Below, one piece after another: positions 12,743 to 25,562 of a stretch of 64,000 bases of DNA (position 1 is the stretch's first letter; every line of letters starts with the position of its first letter). The DNA is from Microglena sp. YARC. Its lineage: Eukaryota; Chlorophyta; Chlorophyceae; Chlamydomonadales; Chlamydomonadaceae. The notes under the pieces were generated by a model. It did no database searches and was not told the origin of the DNA. It saw only the letters and a program-made list of their open reading frames with translations. Made by a program: the position numbers and the translations under genes. The stretch lies in assembly GCA_022414725.1 (NCBI GenBank), contig CM039462.1:57499838-57563837 (forward strand). The letters are read 5' to 3'.

Positions 12743-13187
12743 ATGCCCCCGAAGTCTCTGGGTAACTGGTTCCCCAACGCTACTGTCCAAAAAGCTTCGC
12801 AACCCACCGACAGCTGCTCCTTGCTGCTTTTCTACCACTACTGCAAACCAGCTCTGTCGGATGCCCACAAGGATAAGCTAACCGCGTTTCTGCACAAGGC
12901 TACGAGCGAGCTCGACCTCGGCGGCCGCATCAGGGTTGCGAACGAGGGGCTCAACTCGACCATCTCGGGTACCAAGGTGGCCGTCCGAGGTTTTGAAGAT
13001 CGGCTACAAGCTTGGAGCCCGGGGGTGGGGGGTGAATCCGGGTCCAGCAAGCCCTTCTCTGACTGCAAGCAGTTCAAGTTTATCGATGATTTGCCACCAG
13101 ACCGAGCTTTCAAGGATGTGAAGATCATCCCTGCTACTGAGCTTGTGTTCTATGGGATACAAGAGAGAGACGCTCCTCTCGCTAATG
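12743..13187 (+). CDS. TSTD2: TSTD2-like exon 1
   Basis: The ATG at 12743 opens a frame beginning [12 protein letters not shown]. It encodes the UPF0176-type N-terminal domain with [26 protein letters not shown] and the [14 protein letters not shown] region. The 5' splice site is G|GTAGGT after 13187, phase 1. Unlike the other exons, no duplicate copies of its edge are seen in the following intron. Confidence 0.87.
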
Positions 13188-16100
13188 GTAGGTTGGGCAG
13201 GCTGCTGCTTGTGTTGGTGTGATTGTGTTAAGTAGCATGCATGGTGCATGGTGTGTTGTACCATGCATGGTGTGTGGTGTGTAGTGCCATGCATGGCATG
13301 TTGATGTGTAGCGCCATGCTTTGTGCATGGTGTGTAGTTCCATGCATGGTGCTTGGTGTTTAGCGCCATGCATGGTGTGTGGTGTGTAGTACCATGCATG
13401 GTGCTTGGTGTGTAGTGCCATGCATGGTGCGTGGTGTGTAGCGCCATGCATAATGCTTGGTGTGTAGTACCATGCATGGTGCGTGGTGTATAGCGCCATG
13501 CATTATGCTTGGTGTGTAGTGCCATGCATGGTGCGTGGTGTGTAGTTCCATGCATGGCATGTTGGTGTGTAGTGCCATGCATTGTGCGTGGTGTGTGGTG
13601 CCATGCCTGGCATGTTCGTGTGTAGCGCCATGCATGGTTCGTGGTGTGTAGTGGCATGCATGACATGTTCGTGTGTAGTGCCTTGCATGGCATGTTGGTG
13701 TTTAGTGGCATGCATGGTGTGTGGTGTGTAGTGGCATGCATGGTGTGTGGTGTGTAGTGGCATGCATGGCATGTTGGTGTGTAGTGGCATGCATGGTGTG
13801 TGGTGTGTAGTGGCATGCATGGTGTGTGGTGTGTCGTGGTGTGTGGTGTGTAGTGGCATGCATGGTGTGTGGTGTGTAGTGGCATGCATGGTGTGTGGTG
13901 TGTAGTGGCATGCATGGTGTGTGGTGTGTAGTGGCATGCATGGTGCGTGGTGTGTAGTGGCATGCATGGTGTGTGGTGTGTAGTGGCATGCATGGTGTGT
14001 GGTGTGTAGTGGCATGCATGGTGTGTGGTGTGAAGTGGCATGCATGGTGTGTGGTGTGTAGTGGCATGCATGGTATGTGGTGTGTAGTTCCATGCATGGC
14101 ATGTTGGTGTGTAGTGGCATGCATGGTGTGTGGTGTGTAGTGGCATGCATGGCATGTTGGTGTGTAGTGGCATGCATGGTGTGTGGTGTGTAGTGGCATG
14201 CATGGTGTGTGGTGTGTAGTGGCATGCATGGTGTGTGGTGTGTAGTGGCATGCATGGTGTGTGGTGTGTAGTTGCATGCATGGTGTGTGGTGAGTAGTGC
14301 CATGCATGGTGTGTGGTGGGTGTGTAGTGGGCATGCATGGTGTGGGGTGTGTAGTGGCATGCATGGTGTGTGGTGTGTAGCGCCATGCATAATGCTTGGT
14401 GTGTAGTGGCATGCATGGTGTGTGGTGTGCAGTGGCATGCATGGTGTGTGGTGTGTAGTGGCATGCATGGCATGTTGGTGTGTAGTGCCATGCATGGTGG
14501 TGTAGGCTAAGGCAACACCATGCAGCTTGATGTGTGGTGTAGAGCGGCGTGCATGGTGGCGTTTTGCACGTGTCGGTTAGCGGTGTAGAGTGCCATGCAT
14601 GGTATGTGGTGTGTAGGGCCATGCATGGTGTGTTGGTGTGTAGTGCCGTGTATGTTGGTGTAGACAAGGCAATACCATGCAGCTTGGCGTGTGGTGTACA
14701 GGGGCGTGCATGGTGGGGTTCTGCATGTGTCGGTTAGCGATGTAGAGTGCCATGCATAGTATGTGGTGTGTAGCGCCATGCATGGCGTGTTGGTGTATAG
14801 TGCCGTGTATGTTGGTTTAGGCAAGGCAATATCATGCATCTTGGCGTGTGGTGTATAGCGGCGTGCATAGTGGCGTTCTGCACGTGTCGGTTAGCAGTGT
14901 CGGGTGCTATGCATGGTATGTGGTTTGTAGTGCCATGTATGTTGGTGTAGGCAAGGCAATGCCACGCAGCTTGGCGTGTGGTGTACAGGGGCGTGCATGG
15001 TGGGGTTCTGCATGTGTCGGTTAGTGGTGTAGAGTGCCATGCATGGTGTGTGGAATAGGCAAGCCAACCCCAACAAGTATGTACCTATACACCCATCCCC
15101 CCCCACCACCCCACCACCCCACCACCCACCCACCCCCCCCCCCCACCTACCCACCCCCCTCCCACCCCCCCCACCCCCACACCCTCACCCCACCCCCCAC
15201 CCACCCACCCACCCCCCACCCCCCCACCCACCCATCCCACACCCACCCATTCGACTTTCCAGCCATCCAGCCACCCGCACACCCTTCCACTTACCCCCAC
15301 CCCCACCCCCACCCCCACCCCCACCCGCACACCCTTCCACCTACCCCCACCCCCACCCCTACCCCCACCCCACCCCCACCCCCCACCCCCACCCCTACCC
15401 CCATCCCCACCCCCACCCCCACCCCCACCCCACCCCCACCCCACCCCCCCCCCCACCCCACCCCCACCCGCACCACCCTTCCACCTACCCCCCACCCCCC
15501 ACCCCCCACCCGCACACCCTTTCCACCTACCCCCACCCCCTACCCCACCCCTACCCCACCCCCCACCCGCACACCCTTCCACTTACCCCCCACCCCCACC
15601 CCCACCTCCACCCGCACACCCTTCCACCTACCCCACCCCCTACCCCCACCCTACCCCCCACCCCCTACCCCCACCCCTACCCCCCACCCCCACCCTACCC
15701 CCCACCCACCCCCACCCCCACCCCTACCCCACCCCTACCCCCACCCCCCACCCCCCACCCGCACACCCTTCCACCTACCCCCCACCCCTACCCCACCCCT
15801 GCCCCCACCCCCTACCCCACCCCTACCCCACCCCCACCCGCACACACTTCCACCCCCACCCCACCCACACATATACTCCCTTTAATGAGTAAACATTTTT
15901 TACAGACAGCCATGTCCTTTAATTTTGTTACCCCCCCACCACCTCACCCCCCCGCCGCACAGACACCCACACACACCCGCACACACACCAACCCCCACCT
16001 CCCCCCACACGCACCCCATCACCCAGGCAGAGTGCATTTGGAACCCAAGGCCTACCACGAAAAAGATGAACCAACCCGTAACCGTAATCGTGGATGTCTG

Positions 16101-25304: not shown

Positions 25305-25562
25305 GTTTGCAACTTTGGGTATGGGTCATGGGTGTTCCTGACCGGGCTGCTGGTTCAGCCACCCCCGGGATGAAGGGGGGGCGGGCAGTGGGGGGGCAGA
25401 ACAAAAAGGTGGGGAAAAGAGCAAGACATATTTCGACTAGGTTCGCAACTCTGGGGATGACTCATGGGTGTTCTTGACCAGGCTGCTTGTTCAGCCACCC
25501 CAAGGATGAAGGGCGGGCGGGCAGCGAAGGTGCAGAACGATTAAGTGGGAAAAAGAATAATA
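25305..25562 (+). pseudogene. Two downstream copies of the 3' end of TSTD2 exon 5 (CCCH finger)
   Basis: Units starting near 25305 and 25441 repeat the finger segment (GGCTGCTGGTTCAGCCACCC in the first) and the Lys-rich end, including the tail and stop text (CATATTTCGACTAG). Each has a small insertion (GGGTATGGGTCATGG or GGATGACTCATGG) that alters the Cys spacing or frame. They lie after the stop codon, so they may be 3' UTR. Confidence 0.85.

What the first reader, a model, noticed from the sequence alone, without database searches (positions are those of the whole stretch)
12743..25562. Every exon from 2 to 5 is flanked by arrays of its own half-copies: 5' halves only upstream, 3' halves only downstream
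Seen directly: exon 2 has four upstream 5'-half and six downstream 3'-half copies; exon 3 has eighteen and five; exon 4 five and four; exon 5 one upstream and two downstream. The single intact exon always sits where the two arrays meet. The five intact exons give exactly 1431 nt in frame. The pattern means each exon-intron boundary was tandemly duplicated into its intron, again and again, at nearly every boundary of one gene. I know of no named description of such a pattern. It suggests a mode of intron growth, possibly with a recurrent cause such as breaks at splice-junction DNA or at the adjoining microsatellites.
Basis: partly seen in the sequence, partly recalled or inferred. Interest (0 to 1): 0.95.

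Follow-up and report, generated by a model that had tools for sequence, protein, structure and literature searches.

The report
Introns built from half-exon copies
In this green alga many introns are lengthened by head-to-tail copies of their own exon edges, so one intact exon sits between rows of decoy half-exons; the same layout turns up in unrelated essential genes, which makes it a good case for studying how introns grow and how the cell ignores decoy splice sites.

Summary
The gene is a five-exon, 476-aa rhodanese/UPF0176 (TrhO-like) gene of a chlorophycean green alga. Exons 2-5 have 4/6, 18/4 (a fifth by eye), 5/4 and 1/2 upstream/downstream part-copies: 5' parts upstream, 3' parts downstream.

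It is not one odd gene. In the same 568-Mb genome, 33 of 95 other coding segments (rhodanese, kinase, CCT-chaperonin, proteasome) carry such copies: 63 upstream, all 5' parts; 56 downstream, all 3' parts. In three genes modelled exon by exon there are 90 copies, none full-length. Donor-side copies always precede acceptor-side copies, and 71 of 80 scorable copies keep AG or GT. Two repeat units searched genome-wide occur essentially only at this locus.

Best reading: tandem duplications of about 0.1-0.25 kb arise generally here, and those straddling a coding/non-coding edge survive because one intact exon remains. The polarity follows geometrically. Splice junctions are not special targets: copies also straddle stop codons, and exon boundaries lie in duplicated sequence no more often (21 of 33) than intronic positions (283 of 405).

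Single boundary duplications are known; I did not find this array form described.

The parts
12743..13187 (+). Exon 1 of the UPF0176/TrhO-like gene (no half-copies)
15929..16716 (+). Acceptor-side array: four 5'-part copies of exon 2 (16027-16113, 16174-16256, 16349-16471, 16571-16652) with intron tail; left edge approximate
16717..16937 (+). Exon 2, intact
16938..17930 (+). Donor-side array: six 3'-part copies of exon 2 (16971-17067, 17153-17251, 17342-17440, 17483-17579, 17645-17743, 17810-17906)
17931..20242 (+). Acceptor-side array: eighteen 5'-part copies of exon 3, unit mostly 124 bp; genome search with one unit matched only this locus
20243..20365 (+). Exon 3, intact
20366..20839 (+). 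Donor-side array: four 3'-part copies of exon 3 (20401-20466, 20499-20567, 20615-20653, 20701-20739) and a degenerate fifth near 20790; units 101 then 86 bp
21387..22187 (+). Acceptor-side array: five 5'-part copies of exon 4
22188..22365 (+). Exon 4, intact
22366..23274 (+). Donor-side array: four 3'-part copies of exon 4 (the last in two hits, separated by a 13-bp repeat at 23145-23256)
24601..24840 (+). Acceptor-side duplication: one 5'-part copy of exon 5 (24664-24757)
24841..25304 (+). Exon 5, intact, ends with the stop codon
25303..25560 (+). Two 3'-part copies of exon 5 beyond the stop codon, i.e. not at a splice junction

Best explanation
The half-exon arrays are products of a general tandem-duplication process in this algal genome, filtered by purifying selection. 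A head-to-tail duplication of roughly 0.1-0.25 kb that covers an intron end and the adjoining exon start leaves a 5' part-copy upstream of an intact exon. One that covers an exon end and the following non-coding DNA (intron start or 3' UTR) leaves a 3' part-copy downstream. Both leave one complete exon in its reading frame, so they are tolerated, repeated and expanded into arrays. Duplications inside exons or of whole exons would change the protein and are not seen in the three genes modelled. Each intron therefore grows inward from both ends: a block of donor copies, then a block of acceptor copies. Because donor copies precede acceptor copies, the intact exons are the only places where an acceptor is followed closely by a donor, so exon definition would pick the right exon among many decoy sites. 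Shown: the copies, polarity, order, locality of two units, occurrence in other genes, decay of many copies, splice dinucleotides in most copies. Inferred: that tandem duplication (slippage, unequal exchange or break repair) made them, that selection removed the other outcomes, and that splicing skips the decoys by exon definition.
For: Polarity and form: 90 of 90 copies in three genes fit, 0 full-length and 0 inverted with low-complexity masking (4 of the 90 were first listed as 'other' because they are truncated 3' parts in the downstream region). Wider sample: 62 of 62 upstream copies are 5' parts and 53 of 53 downstream copies are 3' parts in 30 of 84 coding segments (4 further hits inside over-wide matches set aside), plus 1 upstream and 3 downstream, all fitting, in 3 of 11 proteasome segments. 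L070 and L071 are in both counts. Order: in none of the 12 introns that have copies does an acceptor copy precede a donor copy (7 of the 12 have both kinds). Locality: the 124-bp unit matches only this locus (19 of 19 matches); the exon-2 donor unit matches this locus 7 times plus one 42-base stretch elsewhere. Stop-codon boundaries are duplicated too. 21 of 33 exon boundaries lie in duplicated sequence versus 283 of 405 intronic and 24 of 80 exon-interior positions: no excess at boundaries. Register-corrected spacings: 90, median 160 bp, 82 between 100 and 250, 29 multiples of three (one third expected without frame constraint). Two TCP1-alpha paralogs with the same exon-3 borders have arrays on opposite sides (L070: 4 upstream, 0 downstream; L071: 0 and 6), so arrays arise independently. 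Adjacent copies are more alike than non-adjacent ones in 11 of 12 arrays of four or more copies, some by a small margin. 29 of 90 copies carry a stop or frameshift, and copy-versus-exon pN/pS is 0.35 against 0.05-0.16 between paralogous exons, as expected for non-coding copies compared with a constrained exon.
Against: No RNA data: that all copies are skipped is not shown. The duplication breakpoints were not resolved, so slippage, unequal exchange and break repair cannot be separated. In the two best cases the 5' and 3' breakpoints nearly coincide inside the exon (exon 2 nt 124/123, exon 3 nt 59/55-58), which simple random duplication does not predict, though the other exons do not show it. 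Splice dinucleotides are kept slightly more often than the identity of the copies predicts (45/52, p=0.014; 26/28, p=0.029; copies within an array are not independent), and copy pN/pS is somewhat below what fully neutral copies should give; both could hint at some function. Not every gene or long intron shows it: 62 of 95 segments have no copies, and the 1.3-1.5 kb introns of two proteasome genes have no boundary copies.
Confidence: 0.8

Rival explanations
1. Splice junctions are recurrent break or recombination sites (for instance through R-loops, or microsatellites next to the splice sites), so duplications are aimed at exon-intron boundaries.
For: 7 of 8 splice boundaries of this gene are duplicated. 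GT-rich and CA-rich repeats adjoin many boundaries. Breakpoints in exons 2 and 3 nearly coincide; in exon 2 they fall at a run of seven G.
Against: Duplications also straddle stop codons. 21 of 33 boundaries lie in duplicated sequence versus 283 of 405 intronic positions; with TRF alone 11 of 33 boundaries versus 0.35-0.60 of intronic positions. Intron-only arrays occur (window 13215-14941; L075 692-1266). Caveat: present introns are already inflated by duplication, which raises the intronic figure.
Confidence: 0.12
2. The half-copies are functional: alternative exon parts or splice-regulatory decoys kept by selection.
For: 71 of 80 scorable copies keep AG or GT, somewhat more than identity predicts. 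61 of 90 copies have no stop or frameshift. One protein record of what appears to be the same species (P0002) includes two half-copies exactly.
Against: No copy spans a whole exon. 29 of 90 are disabled. pN/pS of copies lies well above the constrained baseline. The two TCP1-alpha paralogs do not share the exon-3 arrays.
Confidence: 0.08
3. The arrays are assembly artefacts.
For: Repetitive loci are prone to misassembly. Some units of the exon-3 array are 98-100% identical to one another, so their exact number could be wrong. The TCP1 gene L071 has frame breaks in this assembly.
Against: Copies differ from the intact exon by 2-25%, which overlap errors do not produce. The pattern recurs in genes on contigs C1 to C5. 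P0002 from a EukProt gene set contains two half-copies letter for letter; another protein of that naming style, P0121, holds a stretch that neither L071 nor L070 of this assembly encodes, so that set probably comes from another assembly.
Confidence: 0.03
4. The units are introners or other dispersed mobile elements that carry splice sites.
For: Introners can fill introns with related sequence (recalled).
Against: Two units searched genome-wide occur essentially only at this locus (that search skips simple repeats and very common words). The copies contain coding sequence of their own exon.
Confidence: 0.01

Closest known systems
Tandem genomic duplication model of intron gain (Rogers 1989, cited in PMC4974935; potato RdRp case PMC4974935, abstract and Results section read; review PMC3443670, passages seen)
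   Same: A direct tandem duplication; in the potato case it spans an intron-exon boundary and reuses the parental acceptor signals.
   Different: There one duplication creates a new intron. Here existing introns are lengthened by up to 18 copies per side, the coding sequence stays a single intact copy, and many genes are affected.
Internal tandem repeats at exon-intron boundaries of human duplicated genes (PMC2812944, passages and start of abstract seen)
   Same: Minisatellite expansion at exon-intron boundaries changes intron structure.
   Different: 27 intron modifications in human segmental duplications, mean unit about 30 bp; here units are mostly 100-250 bp (82 of 90 spacings), in housekeeping genes, in separate donor and acceptor blocks.
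Introners (recalled)
   Same: Repeated sequence that makes up introns in algae and other protists.
   Different: Introners are dispersed families; the two units tested here are confined to their locus.
Tandem (mutually exclusive) exon duplication (recalled)
   Same: Exon sequence is copied next to the exon.
   Different: Whole exons with both splice sites are copied there; none of 90 copies here is whole.
Giant introns with satellite DNA, Drosophila kl-3 and kl-5 (PMC6508621, search listing only)
   Same: Introns enlarged by tandem repeats.
   Different: The listing describes satellite DNA; whether any contains exon borders was not examined.

Membership tests
Tandem genomic duplication (intron gain) | Direct head-to-tail duplication of a segment that holds a splice site | tested here: met
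Tandem genomic duplication (intron gain) | A new intron is created that relatives lack | tested here: inconclusive
   Paralogs L070 and L071 differ by two introns, but no outgroup gene structure was available to say gain or loss
Tandem genomic duplication (intron gain) | Both ends of the intron come from duplicated AGGT of one exon | not tested
   the DNA just after the donor of L070 intron 5 was only looked at by eye: it is not the start of exon 6
Minisatellite spanning an exon-intron boundary | Tandem array (unit above 10 bp) whose unit contains the boundary | tested here: met
Introner | Related copies dispersed over many genes | tested here: not met
   two units tested
Tandem alternative exons | Full-length exon copies with acceptor and donor | tested here: not met
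   0 of 90 copies
Tandem alternative exons | Copies appear in mRNA | not testable with these tools
   no transcript reads held; P0002 is a protein record of unknown support
TrhO/UPF0176 rhodanese family (host gene) | UPF0176_N, Rhodanese and Rhodanese_C domains | tested here: inconclusive
   UPF0176_N 37.2 and Rhodanese 37.7 bits, above cut-off; Rhodanese_C 23.1 bits, below its cut-off of 26.9; many listed homologs cover over 90% of it at 42-62% identity, most with all three domains precomputed

The most novel reading that the evidence does not exclude
Tandem duplication of coding/non-coding edges, not transposons, is a leading mode of intron growth in this alga. Many long introns consist mainly of a donor-copy block followed by an acceptor-copy block seeded repeatedly from the living exon, so that the arrays are a time-ordered fossil record of each exon, and the splicing machinery must work by exon definition to ignore dozens of intact-looking decoy sites.
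Probability: 0.5. Interest if true: 0.88.

Novelty: new variant of a known kind. Interest (0 to 1): 0.77.

Why it matters
How introns become long is mostly attributed to transposons (recalled). Here is a genome in which the DNA itself shows another route: repeated copying of an intron's own edges, in essential genes such as CCT chaperonins and proteasome subunits. It gives a natural test of splice-site choice, because near-identical donors and acceptors stand in rows around a single true exon, and perhaps a natural record of tandem duplication, because copies may preserve older states of the exon. It also warns that gene finders may fuse such half-copies into false proteins, as P0002 appears to show.

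Tried and rejected
Ichthyosporean origin: suggested by the first homolog list (Creolimax and Sphaeroforma proteins near the top; the Creolimax id was recognised from memory); dropped when TCP1-alpha matched chlorophycean algae best. Coincident breakpoints in the exon middle as a general rule: holds for exons 2 and 3 of this gene, not for the others. Intron 5 of L070 as a fresh intron gain that keeps an unspliced ancestral copy: the stretch at 8669-8870 is only the place where donor and acceptor arrays meet. Selection on splice dinucleotides: only a weak excess, with non-independent copies. Copies budded strictly from the exon side: identity to the exon falls with distance in 9 of 12 arrays, but the nearest copy exceeds the mean of the others in only 8 of 13. 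Junction targeting: first judged with TRF, which misses diverged arrays; repeated with one equally sensitive blast test for boundaries, introns and exons while checking this report, same conclusion. Species: Chlamydomonas sp. ICE-L (532-Mb assembly, passage of PMC11228838) is a guess from genome size, not tested.

Full report
What the locus is. The five exons join to 1431 nt in frame and encode a 476-aa protein with UPF0176_N and Rhodanese domains and a sub-threshold Rhodanese_C, i.e. a TrhO-like gene (the functional name is recalled). Many listed homologs cover over 90% of it at 42-62% identity. The window is part of contig C1 (194.9 Mb) of a 568-Mb genome in 2390 contigs. The host is a chlorophycean green alga: the best named matches to its TCP1-alpha are Sanguina, Astrephomene, Volvox, Haematococcus and Chlamydomonas at 75-77% identity. 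EukProt proteins with ids of the form gene13507-19366_t (P0002, P0125) match so closely (100% and 99%) that they appear to come from the same species.

The observation. Two weak reverse-strand hits (33060-33000 and 15183-15155) are the only hits that do not fit. Exon 1 has none. The downstream copies of exon 5 lie beyond the stop codon. Repeats with units of 25 bp or more cover 45-97% of the four introns but 18% of the window on either side of the gene.

It is not one gene. I took coding segments found by four Pfam searches of the same genome (rhodanese; kinase; CCT chaperonin; proteasome) and looked for same-strand copies of each segment nearby, mostly within 1.5 kb. In 84 segments (54 loci not contained in the five fetched CCT regions, plus 30 anchors in those regions; one anchor, itself a half-copy, was dropped beforehand) 30 had copies: 62 upstream copies, all centred in the 5' half, and 53 downstream copies, all centred in the 3' half, with no exception. 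Four hits fell inside two over-wide matches (L069, L073) and were set aside. By family: rhodanese 2 of 8, kinase 6 of 30, CCT 22 of 46. The denominators include single-frame kinase genes that may lack introns; the window gene is not counted. Five small proteasome regions gave 3 of 11 segments positive, 1 upstream and 3 downstream copies, all fitting. Totals: 33 of 95 segments; 63 upstream, 56 downstream.

Three genes exon by exon. For the window gene and two TCP1-alpha paralogs (L070, which runs off the fetched stretch, and L071; exon ends, some set by eye) an inventory gave 52 upstream 5' parts, 34 downstream 3' parts and 4 truncated downstream 3' parts: 90 of 90 fit, none full-length, none inverted with low-complexity masking on. 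Twelve of 15 introns have copies; the three without are 76, 99 and 637 nt long. In no intron does an acceptor-side copy precede a donor-side copy; 7 introns have both kinds. The stretches from the intron ends to the outermost copies make up 20-98% of intron length in the 12 introns with copies. AG is kept in 45 of 52 acceptor copies and GT in 26 of 28 donor copies.

What made them. The 124-bp unit of the exon-3 array matches this locus only (19 of 19 matches); the exon-2 donor unit matches here 7 times plus one 42-base stretch elsewhere (this search skips simple repeats and very common words). So the two units tested are local copies, not members of a dispersed family. Adjacent copies are more alike than non-adjacent ones in 11 of 12 arrays of four or more copies, as local duplication predicts. 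Register-corrected spacings number 90, with a median of 160 bp (86-500; 82 of them 100-250), and 29 are multiples of three, so they are not held in frame. By contrast a 63-bp array inside the RING-finger frame of this window is a multiple of three; one case only. The TCP1-alpha paralogs share the exon-3 borders but L070 has 4 upstream and 0 downstream copies of that exon, L071 0 and 6: independent, recurrent events.

Why the polarity. A tandem duplication from the intron into the exon must leave the 5' part upstream of the intact exon; one from the exon into the following non-coding DNA must leave the 3' part downstream. Polarity is therefore a geometric consequence of tandem duplication plus survival of an intact exon; it needs no special mechanism (inference). 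Two facts argue that the junction itself is not the target. Copies straddle the stop codon here and in L075. And with one blast test applied alike (150-nt query centred on the position), 21 of 33 exon boundaries, 283 of 405 intronic positions and 24 of 80 exon-interior positions lie in duplicated sequence. A cruder test with TRF clusters gave 11 of 33 boundaries, 0.35-0.60 of intronic and 0.11-0.28 of exonic positions. The introns are already inflated by duplication, so the intronic figure is biased upward.

Are the copies coding? 20 of 90 have an in-frame stop, 17 a frameshifting net indel, 29 either. pN/pS is 0.35 for copy versus exon and 0.63 for adjacent copies, against 0.05-0.16 between paralogous TCP1 exons. 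A neutral copy compared with a constrained exon should give roughly a half (my estimate), so the values sit between coding and neutral, a little on the constrained side. I read them as non-coding fossils seeded at different times from a living exon; a minority function is not excluded.

How splicing could cope (inference). In each intron the order is donors then acceptors, so across the gene an acceptor is followed closely by a donor only at the intact exons. A machinery that pairs sites across exons would find exactly those; one that pairs the nearest donor and acceptor across introns would retain half-copies. RNA data would decide.

Literature seen. Tandem genomic duplication across an intron-exon boundary is documented in potato (PMC4974935: abstract and Results read) and reviewed as an intron-gain mechanism (PMC3443670: passages). 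Minisatellites at exon-intron boundaries modify introns of human duplicated genes (PMC2812944: passages). Six core-Reinhardtinia algae have conspicuously long introns (median 198-343 bp) whose advantage is called unknown (PMC8226300: passages). Ten searches found no description of the array form seen here; they cover only open-licence PMC papers.

Verdict.

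Noticed in passing
introns of window gene, L070, L071: The 5' half of an intron is richer in G+T than its 3' half in 13 of 15 introns (extreme cases 0.74/0.22 and 0.77/0.15). GT-rich starts and CA-rich ends could pair as RNA; compare intron-bridging hairpins reported in fish (recalled).
   Followed up: partly
L070 and L071: The two TCP1-alpha paralogs differ by two introns: one at residues DDLR|R only in L070, one at TGG|DGD only in L071; both introns have donor and acceptor half-copies. 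Gain or loss not resolved.
   Followed up: partly
L071 about 4730-4780 and 6065: Small frame breaks in this assembly where the EukProt protein P0121 reads through; sequencing error, strain difference or decay.
   Followed up: partly
window 17820-17906 and 19707-19754: The EukProt protein P0002 contains the translations of these two half-copies exactly, as if they were exons, and ends within the intron after exon 3.
   Followed up: yes
window 26256-26449 and 26938-27133: Inverted repeat with arms of about 195 bp, 84% identical, downstream of the gene; perhaps a small transposon.
   Followed up: no
window 31296-31990, minus-strand ORF 30956-32215: 63-bp in-frame minisatellite (11 copies, 97% matches) inside a RING-finger protein.
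   Followed up: partly
window 50-3914: Frames with protease, reverse transcriptase, RNase H and integrase-zinc domains (first frame only), probably an LTR retroelement.
   Followed up: no
L074 2840-3101 (reverse-complement coordinates): Short-unit repeat right after the exon that repeats the donor itself (TTGAGGTGGG-like), a short-unit version of the same theme (by eye).
   Followed up: no
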